Made by a program: the position numbers and the translations under genes. Source: Luzula sylvatica (taxonomy: Eukaryota > Streptophyta > Magnoliopsida > Poales > Juncaceae). From it: a stretch of 64,000 nucleotides of DNA. The number at the start of each line of letters is the position of its first letter. The first letter of the stretch is position 1. This document shows, in pieces, positions 5,793 through 37,273 of this stretch. The notes below the pieces were generated by a model. It made no database searches and was not told where the DNA came from. It was given only the letters and a program-made list of their open reading frames with translations. The stretch covers positions 23,025,914 to 23,089,913 of the forward strand of contig OX326958.1 of assembly GCA_946800325.1 (NCBI GenBank), read 5' to 3'.

Positions 5793-6005
5793 TCCTAAGT
5801 TGAGGAAATCTCCTCTGTACTTTCCTACTCTCTCTCTCTCTCTCTCTCCTAAGTTGAGAAACCTTCTTTGTATTTTCCTACTACTCTCTTTCTCCCTCTC
5901 CTAAGTTTAGTAGTCTCTTTCCTTTGTACTTTCCTACTCTCCCTCTCTCTCCTAAGTTGCGGAACCTCCTCTGTACCTTCCTACTATTTTCCTATTCCCT
6001 GTCCG
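5793..6005 (+). repeat. 53-55 bp tandem repeat in the 5' leader of the CNL gene
   Basis: Four diverged units, each starting CCTAAGTTGAG or a near variant, begin at about 5793, 5848, 5901 and 5951. Each continues into a TCTGTACTTTCCTACTCTC-like stretch. CT-dinucleotide runs lie inside and after the array (5829-5848, 6051-6078). It sits 110-320 bp upstream of the CNL start codon, so it is promoter or 5' UTR sequence. Confidence 0.8.
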
Positions 6006-6048
6006 GTCGCTCTTTCTACCCCTATCGTTCAGAAATCTTCTCTTTCTC

Positions 6049-6082
<34 letters not shown>

Positions 6083-6112
6083 AAATTTTGTGGCTTGTGG
6101 GTTGGGGGGGGA

Positions 6113-12100: not shown

Positions 12101-15100
12101 TTGAACGGGGACTCCAGACGGTTGCTTTGACTTAAAAAAAGCTTCATTCCATTCAGTCTTCTTGCCCATCTTGCTGCATCCAAATCCAATGTCCTCAGTG
12201 TCGGAGTTCCTATCGACTTTGTTGCTCGTAGCTCACAGAGGAAAAGTCGGAACTACATTTACGCATACATGGGCTCCCACATGAAAACTTCAAATGTGAT
12301 TGTGACCCGATATAATATTGAAAATTTTGTTATGCACGTACAATTGGTTTGATAAAATTATTAATTGTAACTATTTTCAGATTCGACGACAGAAGGCTCA
12401 AAATGGAGAGGGCAGCAGCAGAGCAAATCAAATCCTGAGCTCAATCTATAATTCAGTAAAAGGTGTAATAAACCGCATACGTAGCGAAGTCAAAGATGTT
12501 CAGGATAAGCTCGACCACGCTACTTCTAGTTTGCAGCATGCAATTGGCATCTTAGGTTCGAAGGGTGAATTTTATCATGGGAAATCAATTAGTCGAGAAA
12601 CAAGCTCTTTAATCAGCGAGCTGGAGGTGTTTGGTCGAGATGAAGAAAGAGATGAAGTGATTGCGATTTTGTTGAAGTCCTCTCGATTGAATAATAACAA
12701 TAAAGGTGACAATGTGGCTGAGTGCTCTTCTAAGAGAAGAAAGAAAGATACATTATCGGTTTTACCAATTGTTGGAATGGGAGGGATTGGGAAGACCACC
12801 CTGGCTCAGCTTGTGTACAATGACGAGAGAGTGAAAAATCATTTTGATATTACTTGTTGGGTAAGTGTATCACAAAATTTCGATGAAAAAAGGTTGATCA
12901 ATGGTATTTTGGAGTCTATTCGTGGAGGGGAACAATTGAATCTTACCAGCTTGAATGCTCTTCATGAGAATCTAAGATTGGGTTTGATGTCAAAAACATT
13001 CTTGATTGTTCTCGATGACATGTGGAACGAGAACAGAAGGGATTGGGATAGTCTATGTGCACCATTGAGGGATGGCCGTGAAGGGAGCATGGTCATTGTA
13101 ACTACACGTTCTCGTGAGGTAGCCGAGATAACTGGTACCGTAACACCCATTTTTCTTGAGGGTTTGTCGCATGATATCTTTTGGGAATTTTTAAAAAAAT
13201 GTGCTTTTAGATCCTCGTATAACCACCCCGAATTGGAAGTGATTGGTAAGAAAATTGTTGCGAAGTTGGAGGGATCACCGTTGGCTGCAAAAACAATTGG
13301 GGGTTTGTTGAATATAGAGCTGGATAGTGAACATTGGAATACTATCTTGGGGAGCCAAATGTGGAAGTTGAAACAAGAGGAGTGTGATATTCTTCCGGCA
13401 CTTCAGCTAAGCTACTTATATTTACCGGCACACCTAAAGAGATGTTTCGATTTTTGTTCAATGTTTCCGAAGAATTATTGGTTTGATCAAAATATATTGG
13501 TCTGTATGTGGGTTGTACATGGATTGGTTTCTCCTCAAGAAGGTATGTTATTGGAGGAAATAGGGGATAGTTATCGGAATGAACTCGTAAAGAGATCTTT
13601 CTTACAACCAATTTTTCCAGGTCATTACGAGGTTGTGTTGTTACATGATTTGATGCATGACCTAGCACAATTTGTTTCACGCAATAATTGTTTATGTATT
13701 CAACCGGGTGATCAGATAGGGGAAATTCCCAAAACTCTTCGGCATTTATCAGTTTCCGGATCGAGTGAGTCGTTGGAGATAAGGAATCGGACAAGATTGC
13801 ATTCACTGAGATTTTTCCAAGAAATGGGAATAACAGATCTCATTGTTGGTTCCTTGTTAAGTAAAATGCCACATCTCCACATGTTGATCCTAGAAGCGTG
13901 TGGCATCAAGGAACTACCTGAGAGTATCGGTAATTTGAAGCATCTCAGGTTTCTTGATATGGAGTCGAACCCAATAAGTGAACTACCGGAATCACTTTTT
14001 CAAATCGATGGCCTACAATATTTATATGTTCGGGGTTGCCCATTACGCAATCTTCCTGAAAGCTTCTCTAAACTAGAAAACTTGAAAATATTTGAAGCAA
14101 ACTACGAAGTTCTAGCAATGATTCCAAATATTGGAAAGCTAACTTCTCTCCAGAGTTTAGAGGTGTTTAAGGTTTCAAAGGAGAATGGACATAAAATTGT
14201 TGAGTTGAGAGATCTAAATCAGTTGAGAGGGAATTTATTTGTCAATAATCTTGAGAACGTGGAGGGTGAAGAAAGTGCTGCCCAAGCTAGTCTTATTAAT
14301 AAGAAGTACATTTCTCATTTATCTCTTGAATGGTCTTCAAATAGAAATACCTCACATAATAATCATAATGCTTGTCGTGAGGATGAAAAAGTGCTCGCCG
14401 GTCTTCGGCCACATAAAAATCTGAAAAAAATGAGCTTATGTTCCTACCTCGGAGGGAAATGTCCGATTTGGTTGCGGAGAGAATGTTTACCTTTCTTAAA
14501 CAAACTACTAATTATTAATTGTTCTGCTCTTGAAGAGTTAACTGTTATCTCTTCCTCCCTCCATGAGCTACACATTTCGGAGTGCAAAACCCTGAAAAGT
14601 ATACAAGATTGTTTGTCACCGAATAATTTACCATTCATAAGGATAATATCAATTGATAATTGTGACAACCTAGTGTCGCTTCCGATTGAGAATTTCGGTG
14701 GATTCGGCTCTTTGGAGGAGTTAACCATATCATTTTGTCCCAATTTGATATGCCCGAAAAAGCTCTTGTTACCTTCCTCCCTAAAAACTCTCGTGCTAAA
14801 AGCATGTTGCGGTATTGACTCCGCACTACCCGACTGCCTATTCTTCCTACCTTCTCTCTCCAAATTGGAGATAACACATTGTCCCCACATAACATTACTG
14901 GAGTTACATCAGCTCAGGAAACTCGGTGAATTAATAGTTTCAGACTGTCAAGAGTTAGTGTGTTTGGGGACACTAGGAGATTCTTCATCCTTGAAGAGAT
15001 TGGAAATTGTTAAGTGCCCTAAATTGCGAGTTTCTAGGATCTTAATGCCCGATTCAGGGAGAAATGGGACATTTATGCTACAACTTTATGAATTGGTTAT

Positions 15101-15885
15101 TAGTGATATTTCTTTTCTCAGGTCTCGAATTTTAGATGCTCTTCCATGCATAAAAATGGTTACTGTGTGTGGATCTTATGAAGTTACGCTGTTCACGGGA
15201 GCAGATAATGTGATTTCGGGAAACCTCCTCGCATCACTAGAAAGTCTAACTCTGATAGATTGTGTTAATCTTCAGTTGGTGGACCTGCCTAGTCTAAATT
15301 TTCTTAAAGAGATTAATGTTCATGGTTGTCCCCAGCTCAAGTCAATATTACACAAAGGGCTTCCCTCTTTAAAAGATGTTAGTTATGATAGAAACGGATG
15401 CCCCGTGTTACAGGAACTCTGGGAAAGGTATATCTCGTTGATTCTTTCTACTTTTCTACTATTAAAATTAATTATGCAAGCACGTTACCATTTTTTTTTT
15501 TTAGAAATTACTTTCTTTTATATGCTCAACCAACGCATGTATTTCATTCTATATTGCATCAACAATTTTTTGTCATGATTCTGTCAATGTGATTTCGTTT
15601 AACATATGCATGCACATCTACGTGGTAGTCAAATTAAGCCTCTATTGATGAATACAATTTTTTGTACTTCTGGGAAATGATATTTCATTCATCACTATAT
15701 ATTCTATTCTTAATTATTACATTAGTTGAGTTGGAATAGCTTGAACTATGTTTAATTGCTTCAGTTATATTTGATGAACTCATTAATTTTCTCACTAAAT
15801 ACTGCAAATAGTTGCACATCTAATGCTTGTTTATATTCACCTGTTCTTTAGGACCAAGAGGGAACGCAATAATGGAAGGCCCTGA
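6113..15885 (+). CDS. CC-NBS-LRR (CNL) disease resistance protein, complete
   Basis: Three exons, 6113-6343, 12381-15427 and 15852-15885, give about 1103 residues. Exon 1 (77 aa) is an Rx-type coiled-coil start ending in the EDVID-like block AEDLLLDFDY. Exon 2 adds the rest of the coiled coil and a full NB-ARC domain: P-loop GMGGIGKTTLAQ near residue 209, RNBS-A HFDITCWVSVSQ, kinase-2 FLIVLDDMW near 284, RNBS-B VIVTTRS, a GLPL motif altered to GSPLAA near 374, and LHDLMHDLA (MHD) near 500. Leucine-rich repeats follow to the end. Such proteins are intracellular sensors of pathogen effectors and work as nucleotide switches. Start: ATG at 6113 is the first in-frame ATG that opens on the family's coiled coil; the longer frame from 5924 runs through CT repeats. 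Both splice phases fit (0 and 2). The C-terminal mini-exon is less certain; without it the frame runs to 15578. Intron 1 is 6037 bp and full of transposable elements. Confidence 0.92.
6566..7166. mobile_element. Foldback MITE in CNL intron 1
   Basis: Long imperfect terminal inverted repeats: the left arm contains AAAAAATCCCTAAGTTTTAG then ATTACTTC (about 6608-6638). The right arm carries the complement (about 7118-7160, GAAGTAATCTAAAAGCTAGG). The inner part is AT-rich and non-coding. I could not find a convincing target-site duplication, so the ends are approximate. Confidence 0.6.
8045..8453. mobile_element. hAT-type MITE, 409 bp, in CNL intron 1
   Basis: The ends are inverted repeats of about 47 bp. 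The left begins GGGTGGCGTTATTGCAAGAG; the right, read in complement, begins GGGTGACGTTATTACAAGAG. They are flanked by a perfect 8-bp target duplication AATATCAA at 8037-8044 and 8454-8461. Eight-base duplications point to hAT elements. No coding capacity. Confidence 0.85.
9440..9975. mobile_element. hAT-type MITE, 536 bp, in CNL intron 1
   Basis: Terminal inverted repeats start CATAGTTAGT at both ends and share CGCGAATAATAC slightly inside. Both sides carry the 8-bp duplication CGTTAGAG (9432-9439 and 9976-9983). The interior is rich in ACGAATAAT and CGTATT motifs and does not code. Confidence 0.85.
10132..10606. mobile_element. hAT-type MITE rich in GATACG motifs, in CNL intron 1
   Basis: Ends are CTATGTTGCACGGATAC and, in complement, CTATGTTGCGTGGATAC. 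Flanking 8-mers ATAATGAA (10124-10131) and ACAATGAA (10607-10614) differ at one base, fitting an old insertion. Inside, GTATCCG/CGGATAC motifs repeat many times. A shorter relative is at 22798-22925. Confidence 0.75.
10793..11886 (+). mobile_element. Solo LTR of a Copia element, in CNL intron 1
   Basis: A 1094-bp sequence starting TGAAGGAAATACAG and ending ATATTCCCCTTCA is flanked by a perfect 5-bp duplication ATATC (10788-10792, 11887-11891). It is the diverged, reverse-complement relative of the LTRs of the Copia element at 39372-47703. For example, both share the block with GGGAATCGG then GGACCGGGCCTTCATTCC. No internal region is present, so this is a solo LTR left by recombination between the two LTRs. 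Reading frames at 11616-11927 and 11696-11887 are LTR sequence, not genes. Confidence 0.9.
11892..12380 (+). other. Remainder of CNL intron 1
   Basis: Non-coding intron sequence between the solo LTR and exon 2. It ends with the acceptor CTATTTTCAG at 12371-12380. No element recognised. Confidence 0.6.
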
Positions 15886-17705
15886 TATACTGCAAGATAT
15901 TTTATAAGATCCAGCACCATAAACTTTGCTAGAGGCATGCATTTTGTTTTTTGTTAAAAATTACGATTATCTGAGATTGTGATATCTCATTGAGAATTTG
16001 TTTGGCTTGAACTTCGCTAAACACAACGATTGCCTTTTCTTTTCTTTTTTTCTTTTTTTGATAATGATTTGCTTAGAAAAATAATTTGGAAATTGTAATT
16101 GTGTTATGTTATGTGCCATAAGAAGCTTTTAAATAGATACTTCGTGTTTAAAGATTTTAGTACAACCCCTCACTCATTCGATGAAAACTGAGCATGACTA
16201 TAAGAAACAAAATCCAACAAAAGGAAAATGAATCATTATGTATTTATTACTGTCATCATATTTTAACTCTCTCTAGGAATTACGCAACCAGCACCATCAT
16301 TTATTTACCTGTCGCAAAAAAGGTGCAAAAATTCAAAATTCAAAATCCATTAAAATCACTCTTTTCCAATTACTATATTAATCGAATGTTACACTTACCA
16401 TAATTTTGGTGCTTCTTTGAAAAATCATATATGGCTTTCACCGTAGCACTATATTTCATCGTTTTCAGCGGGCCCATATGCCTAAAACACCGAATAAAAA
16501 GTTTGTAATAAAGCATAAAATTAATATGTTATGAATAAATTAACTTACACAATTTCGGTATATCTTAATCTCCAAGCTGGAAAACCTAAATGGCATCGCG
16601 CAGGTCCATAGACAAGAAGCAATTCTGGCTCGGGTCCACCATGCCCTAATAAAAACAACAAAATAATTTTTCAGGGGGCCTTTTTGCAAATATCAACAAT
16701 GTAGAGTTTTTTGCAATTTAGGCAAAATACAGGGGCTTAATTGTAAATTTAGGGAAGTACAAGGAGAGGTAATTCACCTATGGATTTCAAAGCATTTGAA
16801 AGGTCAGCTTCGGTGAAATTTAGGGTTTCGATTTCGTCTTTATTTGAATTCGAAGAATTTGAATAGAGATAATTAGTTGCTTTAACAATGGCCTCTTTTC
16901 CGTCACTGTAAGAAATAATCTCTATTTTGAGTCCATGTAGATCCAAATTTGAAGGCACATTTCTATCATCGAACTCCTACAAAATCAAATTAAGTTAATT
17001 TAATTTTGTTTATTGATTCTATTAAATAAGGATTTGTTGATTGAATTACCAAGGATTTCATTTCAATAGATTTTTTTAAAGTTTTTTCATCGGCTATGTT
17101 TGATTTCTTCAGCACACCTAGATATCATCATAAACATTAAAAAATAATTAACTAAATTAAACAGTGAATAAATTGGTAGAATTATTACCTTCAATATCGT
17201 AAAGAATGACATATTTAATGCCAATATTCGATAACCATAATAAAAGCTGGTTAATTTGTCTTTTATTCTTCGCCTCTTCACTGTCGATCACAATTGCCAA
17301 GTACTTGAGTTTCTCCAAATTCAAATTTTGGTATTTGGAGAAAAATCCAGATGAGATTATTAGAAATTGGATTTGTAGAGACAAATACGACCATAAATGC
17401 ACAAGTGTTACTACCAGATGGAGCAAACACCAGAAAAATCCAAGAATAGGGTACAGAATTATATATCCCTTTACCATCTGCAAAGAAAAGAAATAAAAAA
17501 TAGATCAAATTTTCTGTGAGGAATTTCAACAAACACTTTATGGGCAATCATTATCTCATAATTAGATCAGCAACACCTCTAGATATCATGGTTGCATAAT
17601 TAAAACATGCAATTATTGTTTCACTTACATTAAAAGGCGAGATTAGGATCCGGAATGTCTCATTAACCAAACAACAAAATCTGCAAAACAAGAATCGAGT
17701 ATCCA
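15134..17705. repeat. Right copy of the CNL-LEW1 tandem duplication
   Basis: Matches 1-2535 nearly base for base, including CNL exon ends, the spacer and all LEW1 exons. After 17705 the sequence continues into what looks like the native LEW1 promoter and first untranslated exon. The left copy lacks these, so this end of the unit marks the duplication junction. Confidence 0.9.
16373..17477 (-). CDS. LEW1/NUS1-like cis-prenyltransferase subunit, right copy, complete with promoter
   Basis: Minus-strand exons 17477-17189, 17117-17050, 16976-16778, 16645-16549 and 16481-16373 give 253 residues with consistent phases. The start ATG lies directly after an acceptor (TTCTTTGCAG), so upstream exons are untranslated. 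One is at 17680-17629; another ends at about 17771 before the donor GTACGT. Motifs: a membrane-type N-terminus, LKYLAIVIDSEEA, ILYDIEGVLKKS, GPEPELLLVYGP, LGFPAWRLRYTEIVHMGP and QNYGK near the end. The family partners a cis-prenyltransferase at the ER in dolichol synthesis; the Arabidopsis relative is LEW1 and the human one NUS1/NgBR. It converges on the CNL gene with about 490 bp between stop codons. The last exon contains ATG|GTAAGTG, a strong donor; if used, the final nine residues would change. Confidence 0.9.
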
Positions 17706-21626: not shown

Positions 21627-22797
21627 AGGGCAGGCAACAACGAGCCGAGCCGAACATAGGTCATCTCGAGCTCGGCTCGAACCATCTCGGCTTGAATCTA
21701 GTTCGAACCATCCCGGCTCGAGTCTGGCTCGAACCGGCTCGTCTCGACTCGGAACAAAGGTTCGAGCTACACATCTCAGGTCGAGCTCGGCTCGAAAAAA
21801 GCTCGAATCAGTTCGGATCGGCTCGCATATTAGTTTGAAAAAAAATCACAAAATTCATAAAAATTCATAAAAACCACAAAAATCACAAAAACATCACAAA
21901 CATATAATAAACATAATTCATACTACCAAATAAACAAATATAGTTCATGAATGTAAGTAAATAAAATAGTCCAACAAATATATACCATTAACGAATTCAA
22001 ATAAAACATATACCATTCTCATCCCCAGATCCCAGCCTTCCTTTCTCCCCAAATCATATACAAACAAAATTTTAGAAAAAAGTTGATTAAAATTATAAAT
22101 TAAATAATTAAATGAGGAATAAATTATACAAAAGGAAATTTAAAAATTTGGTTTCAGATTACTTACTCGAATTTAGAATTCACCATGTCCATAACTGGAT
22201 TTATATGGTTACCTGCAAATTATTGGCACAAACTCAGTCTCCTTAATTAAGACATTGTTTCTAAATCAAACTATCTCGTTGCAACAATAAAACAATACCC
22301 CAAACTAAATTAATTACAACCAATTTTTCATAAGAGGTACTGTTTTGACTTGTAGTTAGAAAACAGGTTTGTTCCGTGATAAAGTGTGTACTCGAAACAA
22401 CAGAAAAACAAAACAGGTCACTTGAATCAATTTTTTATAATGCATTCATTTTGCGGTTGCGATTTCAGGAATTTATCTTAAAACACAACATTATATTTTT
22501 TTTCAAAATACTACTAATCATAGTTAAAATTTCAAGATCGAGTTAAACATGAACACCTTAATTCAATTTTCAAAGTGCACGAAATCGAAATTAGTTCTGA
22601 TTCGAGTTTTGGATAATAATTCTGTATTTTGAGTTTTGCGTCAAGTTGAGTATAAATAAAAAACTAAATCATACAGACTCAATGAAAACCAGTTAATTTT
22701 TTTAAACAGAAATTGATAATCGAATCAGTTAACCACCGATTACTGATTAATTGGTGATTAATTCAAATTTTTACAATATTGCCTGGCGCCGAGAAAC
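21627..22797. other. Spacer beginning with a possible hAT end and a GAGCTCGGCTCGAA-rich tract
   Basis: TAGGGCAGGCAA at 21627 resembles the end of the hAT MITE at 18656. It is followed by the same kind of GAGCTCGGCTCGAA-rich tract (to about 21830). No matching right end or target duplication was found. The rest is AT-rich and non-coding. Confidence 0.4.
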
Positions 22798-22925
22798 CTG
22801 TGTTGCACAGATATGACGATATGTATTGGATACGGAAATACGATATTTTAATATATGATTTATGATACGATACGGATACGACGATACGGATAAATTCGAT
22901 TTTTTGAAGTATCCACGCAACATAG
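22798..22925. mobile_element. Short GATACG-rich MITE upstream of RPS10
   Basis: Ends CTGTGTTGCAC and, in complement, CTATGTTGCGTGGATAC match the element at 10132-10606. The body has the same GATACGATACGGATACG repeats. It lies about 50 bp upstream of the first promoter motif of the plastid RPS10 gene. Confidence 0.65.
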
Positions 22926-22976
22926 CAATAAACAAGTTGGTTAGGCCAATTGGGTTTTTTTTTTCCCCTCAACAAT

Positions 22977-23001
22977 AGCCCAATATCTCCTCCCCAGCCC
23001 A
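22977..23001 (+). promoter_or_regulatory. Two site II-type elements in the RPS10 promoter
   Basis: AGCCCA occurs at 22977-22982 and 22996-23001 (TGGGCT on the other strand). TGGGCY site II motifs are typical of nuclear genes for ribosomal and organelle proteins. They lie about 115-140 bp upstream of the start codon, in a pyrimidine-rich leader without a clear TATA box. Confidence 0.5.
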
Positions 23002-23114
23002 ATTCACCCCAACGGACTACCTTATCCCCTTCCTCCTCCCCCCAACAGGATAAACTCTCAAACAAGCTTGTATCTTCATCACTCTCTCGCCATCGATTCT
23101 CTACTGCCGTTGCA

Positions 23115-25068
23115 ATGGCCGTAGCTTCTTCGCTCGCTTCAACCCTCTCTCTACTCCCTCTCCGCCAATCCGCGGCGTTTTCTACTTCCAAACCCTCATT
23201 TCTCTCTTTCTCCATTCCTGCCAGGGCCGTACCTTCCCTTTCCATCCTGCTCTCTAACCGGCGCCTCTTCGCCTCCAAGGACGATTCCGTCAGTTCCGAA
23301 GACGAATTTGTAGAGGACGATGAAGAGGAGGTGGAGGGATCTGAGGTTGAGGAGACTTCCGACGAAGTAGAAGAGGAAGATCCGGATTCTGTTTGGAACG
23401 AGGAAGAGGATGAAGCTGGTTGGGTTGGCGACGAGGATGAATTTGACGAGATTGAAGCATCTGAAAGTGCAATTGAGGTATGTCATTTTATACTTTGAAT
23501 TCCTTCACCGAGTTTAATTTTGTGCACATTTCTTCGTGTTATATGTTAATAGAAATTTCACAATTGAGATAATTCAAATTTTGAATTTGCATCCGAAATT
23601 GAACCTCAGGTCGCAGCAGTTGAAGAAGCTCCCAAGAAGTCTGCTTCAGTTAAAGTCACCAAACCAAAGGTACATTAATCTATACACCTCATTTTTTTTC
23701 ATATTATGAATTAAATTATGATTTTTTTTTCTTGTTTCTACTAATTGTAGTTAGAATTTCTTCGAATCCAGTCTTTCTTGTTTTGTTTTGATATATACAC
23801 ACTTTAATTTTAACTTAATTTCAATCTAACTAGCAAAATCAATGGACCAACAATAACTAATTCGCCAGTAAACTAAATCAATGGATCTCTCCATTTAACT
23901 TCTTCCTTCTCAAACCTTCCACTTTCTCTATTTTCCAACAGAAAATTACGCTAAAAAACAAAAACGGTGAAAATATTGTCGGAATATTCCAAGAATCTAA
24001 TTCTGGCGAGATCGTGGTTTTGTGTCATGGATTTCGATCATCGAAAGAAAGCAAAACCATTTCGTACTTATCCGAAACCCTAAATTCTCACGGAATTTCA
24101 AATTTCAAATTTGATTTTTCTGGAAACGGTGAAAGCGAGGGCCAATTTGAGTACGGAAATTATTTCAAAGAAGTCGAGGATTTAAAATCGGTAGTGGAAT
24201 ATTTTAGAGAGAGAAATAGGGATATAAATACTATTACTGGACATAGTAAAGGGGGCAATGTGGTGATTTTATACGCTTCATTGTATAATGACGTTTATAA
24301 TGTCGTGAGTTTATCTGGAAGATTTGATTTAAATGAAGGAATTAAAGAGAGACTAGGAGAGGATTATATGGAAAATATCAAGAAAAATGGATTTATTGAT
24401 GTGAGAGATAAATTAGGGAAATTTATGTATCGAGTGAGCGAATCGAGCTTAATGGATCGATTGGGGATAAATATGAAGGAAAAATGCGTGTTAATTGATC
24501 CAAAAATTAGGGTTTTGACTATTCACGGTTCTAACGATGATACCGTGCCCCTAAACGGTGCTATTGAATTTGATAAGATTATAAAAAATCATAAATTAGA
24601 AATTATTAACGGCGCGGATCATAGATTTTCGAAGAATTTATTCGAGTTATCTAATTTTGTTGTTGATTTTGTTAAAAAGAACTAATGAAAATAATCAACA
24701 AAACTAAATTATAATTATAATTATTATTATTTTTTAATTTTTAATTTTTTATTTAGAAACCAAACAAGTACCAAATCAGAATAAAGCTAAAATCATACTA
24801 CGTACCGCTACTCGAGGACACGTGCAAGCAAATACTCGAGGCGGCACGGACCACGAACGCCAAAACAAACGGGCCGATATTCTTACCGACAAAAAAGCGA
24901 ATTTATTGTGTGTTGACTTCGCCGCACAAGTACAAGGACGCGAGAGACCATTTCGAGATTCGGACTCATAGAAGATTGATCGATATTATGCAGCCCACTG
25001 CCGAGACGGTCGAGTCGCTCATGCAACTCAATTTCCCTGCCGGTGTCGATGTTAAACTTAAAATTTAA
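23115..25068 (+). CDS. RPS10: Plastid 30S ribosomal protein S10 (uS10c), nuclear gene
   Basis: Exons 23115-23477, 23610-23669 and 24757-25068, all phase 0 with GT-AG introns, encode 244 residues. The start is ATGGCC in a good plant context. Residues 1-55 are Ser/Ala-rich and basic, like a chloroplast transit peptide. Residues about 56-121 are strikingly acidic (EDEFVEDDEEEVEGSEVEE). Exon 2 (20 aa) is Lys/Val/Ala-rich. Exon 3 is the S10 domain: YQIRIKLKSYYVPLLEDTCK, TNAKTNGPIFLPTKKRIYCV, RDHFEIRTHRRLIDIMQPTA and the end AGVDVKLKI, all plastid-type S10 blocks. S10 sits in the small-subunit head. Intron 2 (23670-24756) contains a complete hydrolase reading frame, listed separately. Confidence 0.93.
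23942..24685 (+). CDS. Alpha/beta-hydrolase (S33-like) frame inside RPS10 intron 2, probable alternative terminal exon
   Basis: An uninterrupted 247-codon frame with the full fold: oxyanion block VLCHGFRSSKESK, DFSGNGESEGQFEYGNY, nucleophile elbow GHSKGGN (Ser102 of this exon), Asp199 in HGSNDDTVP and His227 in GADHRFS. It belongs to plant serine hydrolases of unknown substrate. Homology to relatives starts at the first codons (KNGENIVGIFQ). These directly follow a pyrimidine-rich acceptor TTTTCCAACAG ending at 23941. There is no in-frame ATG before the middle of the protein; the only early start is a GTG at 24014. The acceptor is phase 0, matching RPS10 exons 1 and 2, so splicing would join 141 transit-peptide and acidic-region residues to the hydrolase, giving about 388 aa. 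No donor is evident before the stop, so it would be a last exon with its own poly(A) site. This is inference from frame and splice logic. Confidence 0.8.
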   Translation, partial: KITLKNKNGENIVGIFQESNSGEIVVLCHGFRSSKESKTISYLSETLNSHGISNFKFDFSGNGESEGQFEYGNYFKEVEDLKSVVEYFRERNRDINTITGHSKGGNVVILYASLYNDVYNVVSLSGRFDLNEGIKERLGEDYMENIKKNGFIDVRDKLGKFMYRVSESSLMDRLGINMKEKCVLIDPKIRVLTIHGSNDDTVPLNGAIEFDKIIKNHKLEIINGADHRFSKNLFELSNFVVDFVKKN

Positions 25069-25383
25069 TTTTTTTGTTTTTAATGTTTTTAATGTTTTTG
25101 TTTTTGTTTTTGTAAGGAAGAGTTGGATTATTGAATTTATGATTTTGTGAATGAGAAAGGGTAGTTATGTCTTTTCATAATTTGGAGAAACGTGCTTCGG
25201 AAATTTAATGGATAGAAAGACTAAAAGTGAATTAATGGAATAATTGAATAATTGATGGGTCACAGACTCACAAATGAACTAAAATGTTCGTGAGTAAAAT
25301 GGAATAGCTTTTCCATCAAGTGAAAGGCTAAATTGAGGCTTTTTTCTTTATTCATACGAGTCAACAAAATAATGTTAGTTTTT
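25069..25383. other. RPS10 3' flank and start of a local duplication
   Basis: A T-rich 3' UTR-like stretch (TTTTTGTTTTTAATG repeats, 25069-25115) is followed by spacer. From about 25310 the sequence matches 28005 onward. Confidence 0.6.
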
Positions 25384-25888
25384 GGACAGTGATATTGACA
25401 GGAAAAATAAATACTAGATACAAGAAATTTTATTCAAATTTGGAATGAATTAAAAGTAAAATTACCATTTCAAGTTAAAATTTTCTGTTCCCAGTAATTT
25501 TATTTCCTGTCAATATCATTACCCTAGTTTTTTCAAGCTATAATTAAATTAAGTCAATTAAATTCTCTTGCTATATTATCAGTTATGACGCCATTTATCC
25601 TGCCCCACCACATTGGTTAATTATATGTTTCTTGTTAATTGACAAGTTAATTATTGGAATAAATAGAGAATGTTTTTTGTCTTTCATTTATTGATGTTGA
25701 TAAAATTTGAGAAAATATAATATGTTTTTCAATCTCACTTAAAGATATTTAATGCGTCAATCGAGGATGATTAAATGGATTGATTAAACTCTAAATTAAT
25801 GGTTAAATTGATTGATTTAATTAAGAAGTCTAATCAATCTATTTAAACACTCTCGATTGACGCATCAAAAGTATTTAAACGAGATTGG
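25310..25888. repeat. Left copy of a local duplication flanking the hAT element
   Basis: Shares GGCTAAATTGAGGCTT, AAGTCAATTAAATT, CTTGCTATATTAT and GTTTTTTGTCTTTCATT in order with 28005-28420. It is interrupted by a 141-bp MITE absent from the right copy. Confidence 0.85.
25384..25524. mobile_element. hAT-type MITE, 141 bp
   Basis: Ends GGACAGTGATATTGACAGG and, in complement, GGGTAATGATATTGACAGG. The 8-bp duplication TAGTTTTT lies at 25376-25383 and 25525-25532. The paralogous sequence at about 28055-28070 reads straight through (GTTAGTTCTTCCAAGC) and serves as an empty site. Confidence 0.88.
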
Positions 25889-26115
25889 GGAGCACCTAGG
25901 CCCGGTCCTGAAATTTTGGAGGCCTGTGACGTAGTGTTAAGATAATCCAAAATTACGAAATCATATCATATAATAATTAAAAAAAAAATTAAATTTAGAA
26001 CTAAATAAATATCCATAAAATTAAAGTCAAAATATTACAAAACATATAAATTTAGAACTAAATAAATATCCACAAAATTAAAGTCAAAATATTACAAAAC
26101 ACATAACTAACATAT

Positions 26116-27061
26116 TCATTTAAATATCCCTCTTCTCGCATTTTTGGAGGCAAATATATCAATTACATTTGCATAATCTAATTCTTGTGCGAAATCATTT
26201 TCAATTGATAATATAGCTAATCCATTTAATCTTTCTTGTGGCATGGTTGATCGAAGATAATTTTTTATTAATTTCAACTTCGAAAAACTCCTTTCTCCCG
26301 ACGCAACTGTGACCGGGATGGTCAAAAGTATTCGATACGCAATCCACGAATTTGGATAACAAAGTTTCATTGTTTCCAAAAGTATTCGATACGCAATCCA
26401 ACGACTCGGCATATATGAGCCAATTTCTATCCATCGTTTCTCCATTTGCTAAATGTCGAACATAATAAATGGGAGAAAAATGCCTACCATTACCATCTTT
26501 AGGAAAATTAACACGATTCATATCTCTTTTAATGGGACCTCTTTTTACTAATAAATCTCGAAATTGTTGGCTAATATCCCTCCAATTAACCGGATCATCG
26601 ATATTAACCAAGTTTCCATTTTCACTAATCAAATTATTGTTAACCAAATTATCATTTTCCTCCTCGTTAACCAAATTATCATTTTTCTCTTCGTTAACCA
26701 AATTATCGTTTCCCTCCTCGTCAACCAAATTATCATTTTCCTCCTCGTTAACCAAATTATCATTTTCCTCTTCGTTAACCAAATTATCGTTTCCCTCCTC
26801 GTTAACCAAATTATCATTTTTCTCCTCGTTAACCAAATTTTCATTTTCTTCCTCGTTAATCAAATTATCATTTCCCTCTTCGTTAACCAAATTATCGTTT
26901 CCTTCCGTCGAAGTATTAATCATAATAAACCTATCCATGGCACCTCTTTGAGATTGAATAAAAGATTCTCGTCTTTGTTTGTTTTTTCTTTTTTCATTTC
27001 CCGACATAAAAATCCTTTTATTTCTCATAATTGTACCTACAATTATAAAAAAATTATACAA
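26116..27061 (-). pseudogene. Deleted hAT (TTF-type/ZMYM-like) transposase
   Basis: Minus strand. The frame from 27061 to about 26440 has a basic start ([13 protein letters not shown]), a nine-residue repeat ENDNLVNEE about nine times, and then [35 protein letters not shown] and [12 protein letters not shown]. These are the N-terminal block of TTF-type hAT proteins. The C-terminal dimerisation block ([50 protein letters not shown]) is in another frame, 26445-26116. WIAYRILL is duplicated at the join. The central catalytic part is missing, so the product cannot be an active transposase. Confidence 0.88.
26640..26895 (-). repeat. 27-bp in-frame tandem repeat, about 9 copies
   Basis: Units of TCGTTAACCAAATTATC plus a CCTC-rich linker alternate between two variants (CATTTTCCTCC and GTTTCCCTCC). 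They encode ENDNLVNEE on the minus strand. The repeat keeps frame in the transposase remnant and opens long frames on the plus strand that are not genes. Confidence 0.93.
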
Positions 27062-28004
27062 AGATGACTTATATATTATATTATAAAGAGAAATTCAGTC
27101 ACAGAGAAATTATAAAGAGATTGAATTATAAAATCCTTTTATCTCGGCAAAATTGGGCGAAATTGGGCCACATTCACAGAGATGACTTATTATACAAAGA
27201 TGACTTATTATACGAAATTATAAAATTCACAGAGATGACTTATTATAAAATTCAGTCACAGAGATTGTACAAAGATGACTTATAAAATTCACAGCAATGA
27301 TAAAATTGGGCGAAATTATACAAAGATGACTTATTATAAAATTCAGTCACAGAGAAAATTCACAGAGATTGAATTTACACGAAATTGGGCGAAATTGGGC
27401 CACATTCACAGAGATTGAATTTACACAGAGATTGAATTCACAGACCAATTCAGCCACATTCACAAAAATTGGGCGAAATTGGGCGAAATTACACGAAATT
27501 ACATTCACAGTGGACAGTGGGCGAAATTACACGAAATTGCAAGATAAATTGACGACAATTAAAGAAAAATTACACGAAATTGAAGAGCAATTCAAAGAGG
27601 AGAGTGCCCCACACAGAGAAGATTGACGAAATTACACGAAATTGATGAAAAACCCGACGAAAATCGTTGCCGCAGCGAAAAAAATGACCAAGAAGCGAAG
27701 AGGAGCCAAAGCGGCGTGTGAACTCGAAGAGGGAAGTTGTCTCCTGGGCTCCTGACGCTCCTGTCATGGTGGCCTCGCGTGCGTGGAGGTTGCTTGCTTC
27801 AGTCGCGTCTCGCGTGGAGGTTGCTTCAGTCGCGTTGCCGCATGTCGCTTCACTCTTCAGTCGCCGTGCATCATGCCGATGCGTGATGTGTTTGCGTGAT
27901 GGGTTTGCTCCGTTAAATAAATGGAGGCCTCCCAAATATGGAGGCCTGTGACATTTGCCAAGTGGGCCATACGTCAGGGCCGGGCCTGGGAGCACCATAT
28001 CAAA

Positions 28005-28420
28005 CAAGTGAGGCTAAATTGAGGCTTCTTCCTTCATTTATTTAGTCAACAAAAAATGTTAGTTCTTCCAAGCTATAATTATTCTAAGTCAATTAAATTA
28101 TCTTGCTATATTATTGTTATGATGCCATTTACCATGCCTTCAAATTTCACCATCACATCTTTAATTGTCCGTTCTTTGTTAATTATTAGAATAAATAGAT
28201 AATGTTTTTTGTCTTTCATTTTTCATTCATTGATACCAATGAAATTTGAAAAAGTATAATATTTTCCTCAATCTTACTTAAACACATTTGATATGTCAAT
28301 CGAGAGTGTTTAAATAAATTGATTAGACTCTAAATTGATGATTAAATTTATTGATTCAATTAAGAATTGATTAATTCAATTAAGATGTCTAATCAATCGA
28401 TTTAAACCCCATAAGATTTG
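28005..28420. repeat. Right copy of the local duplication
   Basis: Parallels 25310-25888 without the 141-bp MITE. The hAT element lies exactly between the copies, so its right target duplication joins directly to this block. Confidence 0.8.
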
Positions 28421-30560: not shown

Positions 30561-32182
30561 TTTAGTTCTTTTCACATATTAGAATACATACATAACTTAT
30601 TCATAAAATTATGATGTGCAAATGATTTCAATGAAAATTAGTTATATTTATGACATTCTCGAGAATTTTGTCGATTCAATTTTTTTTATATTATTATTAA
30701 TAGTATAATTTTTTATCACGCCCTTGCAAAATATTTTCTCGAAATTCACCACTATAATTTTGAATCTCTTATTCACGAAGGAACATATGGCATATCATTG
30801 CTAGTGCAATATAATCCATGGTATCAAAGGATCCATATGGCCTCTAGCTCCGATTTATGACCCAATTGTTTCTTTAGCCATCGATGGGTCCCCCGAAGCA
30901 ACACTAACCAACTGTTAATGGATAATTTGAGCCTTCAAAGGGTAATATTGACTTTACTAGTTTATAGTTATTCTTCCTAAATTTATTTTATAATAATGTC
31001 TGGAAACTACGGACACACTAATTCGAGTGATAATTCAAATTTATTTTAACAATGTGTGATAAATTAGGCGGTGATTAGATGTCTAGACACCATTTTGCGA
31101 AAAAACAATAATGAATTATATATAAACAAAACATTATATCGAACATTTGAATGCTTTTCCTGATTATTTGAAAATAAAATTACATGGTTCTTGCTCAATG
31201 ATTTTATTAGTGTAATACGTATTTTTTGTTTGATATTATAATTATTAAATTTGTTAGTACATGATGAAAAAATATGTATCGAATAAGTAGCAATAATCAT
31301 TTTTTTTTTTCATAAGTTTTATCTTGTGTTTTATATTTTCAAATTGTAAAACAGTAATTCTCATGTTTTTTGAAAATTTAACATTATTTTATTTGAATTT
31401 ATACTAACATATTGTGAAACATAATTAGAGTAAAAGAAGTCATAAGATGGACCAGAAATTCGGTACTTATGCATTAAATAATATATTGCATACGTTAAAT
31501 ATTGATAGCACTTAAGTTGTTCTCACAATGTTAACTTATTTTTTATTTTAAATTAATATTATTTCCAATATCACATTATATGATTTTGTTATGCAATATA
31601 TAATCTTAATCTTATAAGTCATTCATTAAAAAAAAAGCTATTCAACATACTACTTGTTAAAGTAAAGGAGACCTCAAGCATAATTATTTTTTTGGATATA
31701 AGAAAAAACTAAAACTTCTTATTTTAATTCGAAGTAAAAGCAACAAAAAAAATTTACAAAGTAAATGCAACATTAGTGAAATAAACAATTTGTATATTAT
31801 GATTACTTAATATTCTAATAAACAGACCATTTTATTTTATATATCTAATTTATTAAAAATAAATTAATTCAACGGTGGAATATTCCAATGTTAACAAACA
31901 AAAAATGAGAATGATTCAAATTCTCATTTAATTTACAAAATCTCAATGTTGAAAATTCTTATGCGGTTAGAGTGAAGTTTTAATTTTGTACGTGCTAGGA
32001 AATCCTAAAATTACCAGTTCATTCCGTACGTGTTAAAACGGTCATCTTAAATGTAAAAAACCTAGCTTTCGATAAATATAGTTAGTTTTCTTCTGTTGGA
32101 GTGCTCTAACAATTCTCCTATAAAAATAATAATCAACTTGTTCTCCGAAACACCCATCTCTCTTCTTCTCTCTTCCATTACC
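30561..32182. other. AT-rich intergenic DNA upstream of the SAT gene
   Basis: No gene recognised. The frame at 31064-31300 is AT-rich chance sequence. Confidence 0.5.
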
Positions 32183-32190
32183 TATATAAA
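32183..32190 (+). promoter_or_regulatory. TATA box of the serine acetyltransferase gene
   Basis: TATATAAA in CCTATATAAACCC lies about 100 bp upstream of the chosen ATG at 32285. The predicted transcription start near 32215-32225 rules out the longer in-frame start at 32096. Confidence 0.7.
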
Positions 32191-32284
32191 CCCAACTTCC
32201 TCTCTCAAAGCTCAAAACTCGCAACTCTCGCTCTATCAATCTATCATCCATAAACAAACACAAATACACAGGTTTCTCTTCACC

Positions 32285-33151
32285 ATGGGTGCATGCAGCG
32301 TAGATAAATACACAAAATCCCTTTTATACCCTTTGTACTCTCCCCCTTCTTCTTACCCGACAAAAGACCGAGAAGCGATGGACGAAATTTGGTACCGAAT
32401 CAAAGAAGAAGCACGATCCGACACGATAAACGAACCAATCCTCCGCAATTACTACTGCCAAATCATCCTCGGCCACGCCTCTCTCGAATCCTCCCTAGCT
32501 ACTCACTTGGCATCGAAGCTCCAAATTCCCAATACGATCCATCAAGACACTCTCGAGAAAATATTCTGCGAAATCTTAAATTCAGACCCTGAAATTCGCT
32601 CTGAAATCCGCGCGGACTTGCTCGCAGTTTCCGAACGGGATCCGGCATGCACGAAAATGGTGCATTGCTTTCTTTACTACAAAGGATTTCTCGCGATACA
32701 AGTCTACCGAATAGCACACCGTTTGTTATTACAGGGTCGATTTGCATTGGCTTATTTGTTACAAAGTCGTTGCTCCGAAGTATTTTCCGTGGATATTCAT
32801 CCCGGAGCGAGAATCGGGAAAGGAATCTTGTTGGACCATGCCACCGGAGTCGTCATCGGAGAAACGGCCGTTGTTGGCGATGACGTGACAATTTTACACG
32901 GTGTCACTCTAGGTGGTACGGGGAAAGAAGCGGGTACCGACAGGCATCCCAAAGTAGGGGATGGTGTTTTGATCGGGGCGGGAGCGAGCGTGCTTGGAAA
33001 TATAAGAATTGGAGACGGAGCCAAAATTGGGGCTGGAGCGGTGGTGGTTAAGGAGGTGAAGGCAGGAGCGACGGCAGTTGGAGCTCCGGCGAAGGTGCTG
33101 GAGATGAAGAAGATGGACTCGCCGGTGGTGCATATGGATCATGGATTTTAG
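32285..33151 (+). CDS. Serine O-acetyltransferase (cytosolic type, C-terminal tail shortened)
   Basis: A single-exon gene of 288 residues. It transfers acetyl from acetyl-CoA to L-serine, giving O-acetylserine for cysteine synthesis. An N-terminal SAT helical domain (IWYRIKEEARSDTINEP, HASLESSLATHLASKL) precedes the left-handed beta-helix of hexapeptide repeats. Active-site residues are present: Asp119 in RDPAC, the Asp-His pair in VDIHP (His172) and His205 in ILHGVTLGGTGK. GKEAGTDRHPK has one residue more than the usual GKxxGDRHPK. There is no transit peptide (MGACSVDKYTKSLL), suggesting a cytosolic enzyme. The start follows TATA spacing and a CACCATGG context. The protein stops at MDHGF, where plant SATs usually continue about ten more residues to a terminal Ile that docks into O-acetylserine (thiol) lyase. 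Confidence 0.93.
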   Translation: MGACSVDKYTKSLLYPLYSPPSSYPTKDREAMDEIWYRIKEEARSDTINEPILRNYYCQIILGHASLESSLATHLASKLQIPNTIHQDTLEKIFCEILNSDPEIRSEIRADLLAVSERDPACTKMVHCFLYYKGFLAIQVYRIAHRLLLQGRFALAYLLQSRCSEVFSVDIHPGARIGKGILLDHATGVVIGETAVVGDDVTILHGVTLGGTGKEAGTDRHPKVGDGVLIGAGASVLGNIRIGDGAKIGAGAVVVKEVKAGATAVGAPAKVLEMKKMDSPVVHMDHGF

Positions 33152-35664: not shown

Positions 35665-35728
35665 TCTCCTTCAAAAAGAAAATAAACGTTACACTTCATT
35701 CCGTCCATAGTTTGGTAGCACTCTCCGA

Positions 35729-37273
35729 ATGAAACCCATTCTCCTCCATCTCCGGCGATTCTCCTCTTCCTCCTCCACCTTCAACTCTCTTCCCATCCCA
35801 CACCGCCAGATTCCACCAGCTGCCGGACAGGATTTCGCGTTTGTCACCCTCTTTCACTCCCATCTTCTCCAATCTCCCCATCCAAACGGTAATCCTAACC
35901 TTATTCCTCTCGCCGCATCTCTCACTCCATTTCGTCTTCTTCATCTCTTCCTCCTTCTCCGCCGAAACCCATCTCTCTCTGTTTCTCTTTACACTTTTAC
36001 CCTTCTCCACTCCCCATCCTCTGTATCTCTCCCCTCTTTTTCCATCCTGCTTCACACCCTCTCCCAATCCCAGCGCCTCAAGTCCGCTCAGTCCGTCCTC
36101 TCCGCTTCCCTCTTCCCCAAATCCCACATTACCAGTTCAGCTCTGTTCGACTCTTTGCTCCACACTTATCGCGATTGTGAGTCCGCACCTGAGGTGTTCG
36201 ATCTTGTGTTCTCTGTATATGCAAGAAACAAGAAGATACGAGATGCATTTGATACCTTTCTTAGGATGCGGGATTATGGATTTCTACCAAAGATTCATTC
36301 TTGCAATACTTTTCTGAGTTCTTTGTTGAGTCTGCAAAGAAAAGACATTGCTTTGAGGTTCTACAGAGAGATGAATCGAAGCAAGATCTCCCCCGATATA
36401 TACACACTCAACATGATTTTGAGATTGTATTGTGATTCAGGCAAAATGGAGAAGGCAATGGAGATCTTCAGTAAAATGGAGACTCTAGGGTTAAGTCCAA
36501 CCATTGTTTCGTTTAATACTATAATCGATGCTTATTGCAAGAAGGGACTTTTGAATAACGCTCTCAAGTTAAAGAATTCAATGGGGAGAAAAGGTTTGGA
36601 GCCTAATGCTATCACATATAATACTTTAATCAATGGGTTTTGCAAAGAAGGCAAATTAAACGAGGCAAATAAGATTTTCAACGAGATGAATATTCAAGGT
36701 GTAATTCCAAACACAGTTACATTGAACACATTGATTAAAGGGTATTGTGAAATGAATAATAACGAGATGGCTTCTAGGGTTTTTGAAGAAATGGTTAAAA
36801 ATGGCGTAGAGGCCGATATAATGACATATAATTTGCTTATCTTAGGTTTATGTAACGAAGGGAAAATGAAAAAAGCGTCCTTATTAGTAAAAGAACTCGA
36901 AAATTCTAATATTGTACCAAATGGCTTCACATTTAATGCATTAATTATTGGGCAATGCAAGAGAAATAATTCTGAAAGGGCATTTCAAGTTTTTAAAGCC
37001 ATGAAGAAAAGTGGATTCGAGCCTAATAGAGAAATATATGAGATGATTGTATCTACGTTTTGCAAAAATGGAGATCTCGAAGGAGCCATTGAAGTTTTGA
37101 AGGAATTATTAGGAAAATGCATTGCCCCGAGCGAGGCTTTGCTTGATGAGTTGTTTGAGGGGATTTATCAGAGGGGTAATATTGGAATTATAGATAAATT
37201 GAGATTAGAGGTTGCTAATGTGAGACTAATTCCTGAAGTTTATTTTAGTAGAGATGTTAGGAAAAAAGAATAG
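35729..37273 (+). CDS. P-class pentatricopeptide repeat (PPR) protein, probably organellar
   Basis: An intronless 514-residue frame, as is usual for plant PPR genes. The N-terminus MKPILLHLRRFSSSSSTF is basic and Ser-rich like a mitochondrial or plastid presequence. From about residue 155 there are nine to ten 35-residue P-type motifs, for example TYNTLINGFCKEGKLNEA, TLNTLIKGYCEMNNNEMA and TFNALIIGQCKRNNSERA. No E or DYW domain follows, so it is not an editing-type PLS protein. P-class PPRs bind specific organelle RNAs for stability, splicing or translation; the target cannot be told from the sequence alone. The reverse-strand frame at 35696-36127 is a shadow of the C-rich 5' end. Confidence 0.95.
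   Translation: MKPILLHLRRFSSSSSTFNSLPIPHRQIPPAAGQDFAFVTLFHSHLLQSPHPNGNPNLIPLAASLTPFRLLHLFLLLRRNPSLSVSLYTFTLLHSPSSVSLPSFSILLHTLSQSQRLKSAQSVLSASLFPKSHITSSALFDSLLHTYRDCESAPEVFDLVFSVYARNKKIRDAFDTFLRMRDYGFLPKIHSCNTFLSSLLSLQRKDIALRFYREMNRSKISPDIYTLNMILRLYCDSGKMEKAMEIFSKMETLGLSPTIVSFNTIIDAYCKKGLLNNALKLKNSMGRKGLEPNAITYNTLINGFCKEGKLNEANKIFNEMNIQGVIPNTVTLNTLIKGYCEMNNNEMASRVFEEMVKNGVEADIMTYNLLILGLCNEGKMKKASLLVKELENSNIVPNGFTFNALIIGQCKRNNSERAFQVFKAMKKSGFEPNREIYEMIVSTFCKNGDLEGAIEVLKELLGKCIAPSEALLDELFEGIYQRGNIGIIDKLRLEVANVRLIPEVYFSRDVRKKE

What the first reader, a model, noticed from the sequence alone, without database searches (positions are those of the whole stretch)
23115..25068. Plastid RPS10 and an alpha/beta-hydrolase appear to share one transit peptide through alternative terminal exons
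Seen: RPS10 exons 1 and 2 both end in phase 0. Intron 2 contains a stop-free 247-codon hydrolase frame with Ser, Asp and His in place. That frame starts directly behind a strong acceptor (23941) in the same phase and has no usable ATG. Known: mitochondrial SDHB-RPS14 in cereals is a case of a ribosomal-protein frame sharing another gene's presequence by alternative splicing. Inferred: a hydrolase copy landed in the intron and captured plastid targeting. An intact AT-rich frame of this length with a full triad suggests selection. I know of no described RPS10-hydrolase gene.
Basis: partly seen in the sequence, partly recalled or inferred. Interest (0 to 1): 0.93.

Follow-up and report, generated by a model that had tools for sequence, protein, structure and literature searches.

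The report
Ribosomal gene lends enzyme chloroplast tag
In this plant, likely a rush or sedge relative, an intact esterase-like gene with no start codon of its own sits inside an intron of the gene for plastid ribosomal protein S10, and the two proteins likely share one chloroplast-targeting peptide through a splice choice, an arrangement whose traces appear in annotated proteins of five monocot orders.

Summary
RPS10 exons 1 and 2 end in phase 0; intron 2 holds an uninterrupted 247-codon alpha/beta-hydrolase with Ser102, Asp199 and His227, directly behind a strong acceptor, with no in-frame ATG before codon 143. It is not peculiar to this plant: of 36 homologues with N-termini of at least 60 residues, 15 carry an RPS10-type N-terminus (14 named monocots of five orders, one unnamed row); none of 19 named non-monocots does, nor does the monocot Wolffia. 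Setaria hydrolase and Setaria RPS10 agree at 80 of 80 residues, then split. In this genome the S10 domain matched twice, both times around this hydrolase; the second locus is a decayed duplicate, and between the copies the hydrolase shows dN/dS 0.08. Two ordinary paralogue loci share five introns that the nested copy lacks, so it is probably an old retrocopy. Most likely one donor chooses between two acceptors, giving plastid RPS10 or a plastid esterase-like enzyme. Transcripts of this plant could not be checked. The nearest known case is SDH2-RPS14 of grasses; ten library searches found no report of this pair.

The parts
23115..23477 (+). RPS10 exon 1: predicted transit peptide and start of the acidic region; shared by both products
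   Evidence: 363 nt, phase 0; full-length relatives Rhynchospora P0122 54% and P0124 52%, JGI P0123 53%
23610..23669 (+). RPS10 exon 2 (60 nt, phase 0), ending in the donor AAG|GTACAT that both products would use
23670..23941 (+). intron 2, left part, ending in acceptor TTTTCCAACAG|AAAA in front of the hydrolase; no usable ATG
23942..24685 (+). hydrolase exon, intronless, 247 codons plus TAA; Hydrolase_4 (S33), triad Ser102/Asp199/His227
   Evidence: AlphaFold model mean pLDDT 95.5; PDB best match chlorogenic acid esterase 8skm, TM 0.87
24245..24247 (+). nucleophile Ser102 in GHSKG
   Evidence: invariant; position read
24536..24538 (+). triad Asp199
   Evidence: invariant; position read
24620..24622 (+). 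triad His227
   Evidence: invariant; position read
24686..24756 (+). 71-nt U-rich gap between hydrolase stop and RPS10 exon 3; contains the distal acceptor TTTTTTATTTAG|AAAC
24757..25068 (+). RPS10 exon 3: whole S10 domain; could serve as 3' UTR in the hydrolase mRNA
   Evidence: PF00338 2.5e-33; NCBIfam rpsJ_bact

Best explanation
An intact alpha/beta-hydrolase exon lies between exons 2 and 3 of the plastid RPS10 gene, and the pre-mRNA is likely spliced from one donor (23669) to either of two acceptors, so that the same transit peptide would carry either S10 (acceptor 24756) or a predicted esterase-like enzyme (acceptor 23941) into the plastid. Shown by sequence: the frames, phases, candidate acceptors, missing start codon, intact triad, missing introns, selection since duplication, and RPS10-type N-termini on the same enzyme in other monocots. 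Inferred: a spliced hydrolase mRNA in an early monocot was reverse-transcribed into this RPS10 intron and gained promoter, start codon and plastid targeting at once. Inferred: the choice of acceptor sets how much enzyme is made per ribosomal protein, and the hydrolase mRNA either ends in the 71-nt gap or runs through exon 3 as 3' UTR. Untested: transcripts in this plant, plastid import of the enzyme, and its substrate.
For: (1) Same N-terminus on two proteins. A search with residues 1-79 of the Aristida hydrolase returned 23 proteins: 15 with the S10 domain only, 7 with the hydrolase only (the query's own protein among them) and one, Eleusine P0241, with both. Setaria viridis hydrolase and S. 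italica RPS10 agree 80/80 up to GDDGEQ and then split; Lolium 78/81, Urochloa 78/82, Triticum/Aegilops 79/83, Iris 70/87, Colocasia/Anthurium 58/97. (2) Breadth: 15 of 36 hydrolases with N-termini of at least 60 aa match RPS10 N-termini at 47.4-159 bits; the other 21 reach at most 26.2, and 720 shuffles at most 34.7. (3) Physical order: Eleusine model P0241 runs RPS10 N-terminus, linker and first part of the hydrolase, S10 domain; P0244 runs RPS10 N-terminus, linker only, S10 domain. (4) In this genome the S10 domain has two matches, both at RPS10-hydrolase loci, and only the window copy has an intact exon 1. (5) Selection: over 239 of 247 codons compared with the duplicate, 19 synonymous and 7 nonsynonymous differences, dN/dS 0.084, Fisher p 3e-9. 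60 of 64 family-conserved sites are kept against 23 of 81 variable ones. (6) Retrocopy: paralogue loci on C1 and C6 share five introns that are absent here. (7) The window copy groups with P0002/P0003 (99/90), apart from the ordinary monocot paralogue P0033/P0116/P0113 (97/97). (8) The first strand of the model begins at residue 2, so the exon starts at the domain edge.
Against: No RNA or protein data for this plant were available. The duckweed Wolffia has the enzyme with an N-terminus unlike RPS10, and Spirodela P0105 has only a short one, so the link can be lost. The Oryza brachyantha pair showed no shared N-terminus, because its hydrolase model begins just before the linker. The Eleusine mixed models are predictions, the hydrolase match of P0241 is below Pfam's cut-off (25 against 27 bits) and P0244 has none. 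The RPS10-borne rows do not form one supported clade; deep forks of the tree are weak. The 30-40-residue linker (LLFG...SQ) of other monocots is absent here, and no remnant was found upstream. The synonymous divergence of the hydrolase between the copies (0.147) exceeds that of the introns (1.5-4.0%), which I cannot explain; against introns alone the deficit of nonsynonymous change is weak (p 0.048). Only 120 of 832 hydrolase hits were listed and examined.
Confidence: 0.86

Rival explanations
1. An independent nested gene: the hydrolase has its own promoter and a small unseen first exon, and merely sits in the RPS10 intron.
For: The duckweed Wolffia has the enzyme with an N-terminus unlike RPS10, so separate first exons can exist. 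Any phase-0 exon could be joined to 23942.
Against: The four ATGs in intron 2 upstream of the frame open peptides of 2-8 residues. Grasses, Iris, Colocasia and others carry the RPS10 N-terminus on this enzyme.
Confidence: 0.07
2. A relic: the hydrolase frame no longer makes protein in this plant and has simply not decayed yet.
For: The duplicate locus has lost both frames. The window copy lacks the linker piece found in relatives and has a long branch, 0.53. It differs at 4 of 64 family-conserved sites, third lowest of 119 rows.
Against: dN/dS 0.084 between the copies. Neutral change of this size would have given about 6-10 stop codons; none is present. Triad complete, model pLDDT 95.5.
Confidence: 0.05
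3. A bifunctional fusion: hydrolase and S10 are joined in one protein, as the Eleusine gene model P0241 suggests.
For: P0241 carries parts of both.
Against: The hydrolase frame ends in TAA, 71 nt before exon 3. P0241 contains only the first part of the hydrolase, without the triad (sequence), so it looks like a prediction error. Separate hydrolases and RPS10 entries with the same N-terminus exist in grasses.
Confidence: 0.02

Closest known systems
SDH2 (SDHB)-RPS14 of grasses
   Same: A coding unit inside an intron of a host gene, made by alternative splicing onto the host's first exon and its organelle-targeting peptide (PMC1543663, abstract, passages; PMC2631504, passages).
   Different: There the organelle is the mitochondrion, the guest is a ribosomal protein transferred from the mitochondrial genome, and the location is shared by grasses. 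Here the ribosomal protein is the host, the organelle is the plastid, the guest looks like a retrocopy of a nuclear enzyme gene, and the arrangement shows in proteins of five monocot orders.
Plant YDL057W-like / YfhR-like S33 hydrolases
   Same: Same family: closest rows P0002 and P0003 are 65% and 64% identical, with triad and conserved motifs.
   Different: The other loci of the family in this genome have five introns in the homologous region and are not linked to RPS10.
Bacterial feruloyl, cinnamoyl and chlorogenic acid esterases (LJ0536, Est1E, 8skm)
   Same: Fold and triad; TM (by query length) 0.79-0.87 for the best 12 rows, phmmer 9e-23.
   Different: 22-27% identity in those rows; the substrate of the plant enzyme is unknown.

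Membership tests
Shared-presequence gene pair of the SDH2-RPS14 kind | guest coding unit inside a host intron | tested here: met
   23942-24685 lies in RPS10 intron 2
Shared-presequence gene pair of the SDH2-RPS14 kind | phase-compatible host exon upstream, no own start codon | tested here: met
   exons 1 and 2 phase 0; first in-frame ATG at codon 143
Shared-presequence gene pair of the SDH2-RPS14 kind | both proteins carry the same N-terminus | tested here: met
   in other monocots: Setaria 80/80, Lolium 78/81 and others; 15 of 36 hydrolases. In this plant it follows only from the predicted splice
Shared-presequence gene pair of the SDH2-RPS14 kind | both spliced mRNAs observed | not testable with these tools
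   no RNA data; sources name several entries as isoforms (Triticum X1; Setaria X2, Panicum X2, Brachypodium X2, Lolium X1), but whether both products are filed under one gene was not seen
Shared-presequence gene pair of the SDH2-RPS14 kind | guest is a gene transferred from the organelle genome | tested here: not met
   guest belongs to a nuclear plant enzyme family with intron-bearing paralogues in this genome
Plastid ribosomal protein uS10c | bacterial-type S10 domain with N-terminal extension | tested here: met
   rpsJ_bact 3.7e-39; plant plastid S10 relatives
S33 / Hydrolase_4 esterases | alpha/beta-hydrolase fold with Ser-Asp-His triad | tested here: met
S33 / Hydrolase_4 esterases | esterase activity | not testable with these tools
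   needs a bench assay
Retrogene | lacks introns that the paralogues share | tested here: met
   five introns in C1 and C6 paralogues, none here; intron borders read from sequence, without cDNA
Retrogene | poly(A) tract or target-site duplication | not tested
   not searched for; would be erased at the inferred age

The most novel reading that the evidence does not exclude
Since early monocot evolution, a plastid esterase-like enzyme has depended for its start codon and plastid address on the gene of the essential ribosomal protein S10. One splice choice per transcript would thus tie the dose of a metabolic enzyme to plastid ribosome production: a two-product gene kept from aroids to grasses, of which ten library searches (listed under Tried and rejected) found no description.
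Probability: 0.62. Interest if true: 0.9.

Novelty: new variant of a known kind. Interest (0 to 1): 0.82.

Why it matters
Few cases are known (recalled) in which two unrelated proteins share one organelle-targeting peptide by alternative splicing; SDH2-RPS14 is the standard one. This case reverses the roles (ribosomal protein as host, enzyme as guest), moves to the plastid, and appears in grasses such as Triticum, Setaria and Lolium, where it could be tested with RNA-seq. It shows how a retrocopy could gain promoter, start codon and plastid address in one step and then stay tied to an essential gene. It warns that knock-outs or expression counts for plastid RPS10 in monocots may mix two products. 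The plant described here adds a natural test: its genome holds a decayed duplicate of the whole locus.

Tried and rejected
A remnant of the 30-40-residue linker (LLFG...SQ) in front of the window acceptor was sought and not found: five query segments, shuffled controls at least as good in 89-232 of 300. The codons CAA CAG just before the acceptor match the frequent QQ of the family, which suggests, but does not prove, that the acceptor moved inward. A local origin of the insertion was the starting idea and was dropped. A bifunctional fusion was considered and rejected because of the stop codon and the partial Eleusine models. The first N-terminus comparison had the two mixed Eleusine models in its target set; it was replaced, which excluded P0241, P0244 and the tandem P0121 and used 133 RPS10 N-termini. 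Of 120 listed hydrolases, P0001 was dropped there because it lacks the CHG motif, and 83 because their N-termini were under 60 residues. Twelve protein pairs were aligned; the Oryza brachyantha pair showed no shared N-terminus. The tree used 46 of 120 listed homologues plus the window. The conservation test left out P0001 and P0033. The dN/dS count left out codons 169-176, the broken stretch of the duplicate, and compared later codons in the window's register across a 2-nt insertion. Papers: ten searches (listings seen) showed no report of an RPS10-hydrolase gene in the held open library; most subscription papers are not held, and the 1999 SDHB-RPS14 paper was not held. An oil-palm proteomics table lists a YDL057W-named protein (PMC5886584, one passage), but which gene it comes from is unclear, so it was not used.

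Full report
What is there. RPS10 exons 1 (23115-23477) and 2 (23610-23669) both end in phase 0, and exon 3 (24757-25068) holds the whole S10 domain. Intron 2 is 1087 nt long and contains a 247-codon frame, 23942-24685, that belongs to the plant YDL057W-like S33 hydrolases. The frame is open upstream to 23861 without an ATG; its first in-frame ATG is codon 143. Behind the exon-2 donor there are two good acceptors, 23941 and 24756; on a simple pyrimidine-tract score 63 and 122 of 5797 AG sites do as well or better. The score is rough: the exon-2 acceptor ranks only 1055. Joined to exon 2, both reading frames continue in phase.

It is an intact enzyme. The triad Ser102, Asp199, His227 is invariant over 43 rows. 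The AlphaFold model has mean pLDDT 95.5, with the first strand at residue 2, so the exon begins at the edge of the domain. The best solved relatives are bacterial chlorogenic acid, cinnamoyl and feruloyl esterases (TM up to 0.87; phmmer 9e-23). The substrate is unknown.

It is not peculiar to this plant. The N-termini of many monocot hydrolases proved to be those of RPS10. Searching with residues 1-79 of the Aristida hydrolase alone returned 23 proteins (E up to 10): 15 with the S10 domain only, 7 with the hydrolase only, and one Eleusine model with both. Side by side, Setaria viridis hydrolase and S. italica RPS10 agree at 80 of 80 residues and then split after GDDGEQ; Lolium multiflorum and L. 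perenne agree at 78 of 81, two Urochloa species at 78 of 82, Triticum against Aegilops at 79 of 83, and within Iris pallida 70 of 87 agree. Weaker pairs are Colocasia/Anthurium 58 of 97, Typha/Elaeis 44 of 86, Dioscorea zingiberensis 42 of 78 and Musa/Canna 41 of 83; the Oryza brachyantha pair shows nothing, because its hydrolase model starts just before the linker. Of 36 hydrolases with N-termini of at least 60 residues, 15 match RPS10 N-termini at 47.4 bits or more; the other 21 reach 26.2 at most and 720 shuffles 34.7 at most. The 15 are 14 named monocots (seven grasses, Typha, two Musa, Zingiber, Iris, Dioscorea, Colocasia) and one unnamed row. The 21 are 19 named non-monocots, one unnamed row and the duckweed Wolffia. 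The orders are Poales, Alismatales, Asparagales, Dioscoreales and Zingiberales. Two Eleusine gene models have hydrolase-side sequence between the RPS10 start and the S10 domain: P0241 holds the linker and the first part of the hydrolase, P0244 the linker only. Oryza brachyantha RPS10 (P0255) and hydrolase (P0018) lie on contigs of the same length, 29856040.

The genome. The window lies at C3:23025914-23089913 of a 445-Mb assembly with 37 contigs. The S10 domain has two matches, and the hydrolase has 11 matches at four gene loci. Two of these coincide with RPS10: the window, and a copy of the region 6.1 Mb away, 95% identical over 2.2 kb. In that copy RPS10 exon 1 carries a 10-nt deletion that shifts the frame into a stop, and the hydrolase breaks at codon 169 and has a further stop at codon 212. 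The window is thus the only one of the two loci with both frames intact. Between the copies, over 239 codons, there are 19 synonymous and 7 nonsynonymous differences, dN/dS 0.084, Fisher p 3e-9; the S10 exon has 5 and 0. Nonsynonymous change (7 of 573 sites) is below that of the neighbouring noncoding DNA (69 of 1412, p 4e-5), though against introns alone (14 of 469) the contrast is weak (p 0.048). The synonymous divergence of the hydrolase, 0.147, is higher than that of the introns, 1.5-4.0%, which I cannot explain. The simplest reading is that the frame was under selection for most of the time since the duplication.

Origin. The other two loci, on C1 and C6, have five introns at the same positions of the homologous region (after residues about 35, 63, 104, 160 and 190; borders read from sequence) and no RPS10 match in the 3-kb loci held. 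The nested copy and its duplicate have none of them. A retrocopy is the simplest reading. In the tree the window groups with P0002 and P0003 (99/90), whereas the ordinary monocot paralogue (rice P0033, Zingiber P0116, P0113) sits in another clade (97/97), which suggests that the RPS10-borne enzyme is a separate old line. The deep branches and the root of that tree are weak, and the RPS10-borne rows do not form one supported clade. The duckweeds Wolffia and Spirodela fall beside Colocasia (99/97) but lack an RPS10-type N-terminus, which suggests a loss of the link there.

What differs here. In other monocots a linker of 30-40 residues (LLFG...SQ) stands between the shared part and the hydrolase. 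Here the exon starts at the domain itself; the lost piece left no trace that I could find. The CAA CAG before the acceptor reads QQ, as in many relatives, so the acceptor may have moved inward (inference).

How it most likely works. One donor, two acceptors. The distal choice gives S10; the proximal choice gives transit peptide, acidic region and hydrolase. Because only 71 nt separate the hydrolase stop from exon 3, the hydrolase mRNA could run on through exon 3 as untranslated tail, so no second poly(A) site is needed. Plastid delivery of the enzyme follows from the RPS10 transit peptide by established knowledge, not from a test here.

Known or new. The nearest case is SDH2-RPS14 in grasses (PMC1543663, abstract, passages). 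This is the same kind of device with host and guest reversed, in another organelle, with a guest that belongs to a nuclear enzyme family. Ten searches of the open library (listed under Tried and rejected) found no report of it. Public annotation names several of the products as isoforms; whether both products stand under one gene there was not seen.

Organism. Not given. Among RPS10 relatives that cover the whole query, the highest identities are Rhynchospora at 54% and 52% and a JGI row at 53% (family Cyperaceae), and the assembly size and AT-rich DNA would suit a rush such as Luzula (recalled, untested).

Noticed in passing
L002 (G000:C3:16943980-16947546) against window 22427-28195: A decayed duplicate of the whole RPS10-hydrolase locus, both frames broken.
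   Followed up: yes
window 25896-27988: About 2.1 kb absent from the duplicate; it holds a hAT transposase C-terminal piece on the minus strand (26119-26448, Dimer_Tnp_hAT 1.6e-15), so possibly a hAT-type insertion made after the duplication.
   Followed up: partly
window 26639-26900: 27-bp tandem repeat, 9.7 copies, in frame inside a minus-strand open frame with repeated NDNLVNEE.
   Followed up: no
window 1626-1991 and 16794-17159: Two pairs of short matches at a constant offset of 15168 bases hint at a duplicated block around the resistance-gene region.
   Followed up: no
window 12306-15578: NB-ARC/LRR resistance-type gene, one long open frame; a separate Rx_N piece at 5858-6457.
   Followed up: no
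window 32066-33151 and 35711-37273: Serine O-acetyltransferase and pentatricopeptide-repeat frames downstream.
   Followed up: no
G000:C5:23297313-23297361 and G000:C6:13394924-13394974: Short (about 50 bp) matches to the 3' flank of RPS10 (query 2065-2118 of window 23000-25200).
   Followed up: no
P0121 (Artemisia annua): A plastid RPS10 record with two S10 domains in tandem.
   Followed up: no
P0247 (Setaria italica RPS10 isoform X2): 17 extra residues just before the S10 domain, suggesting a further acceptor upstream of the S10 exon.
   Followed up: no
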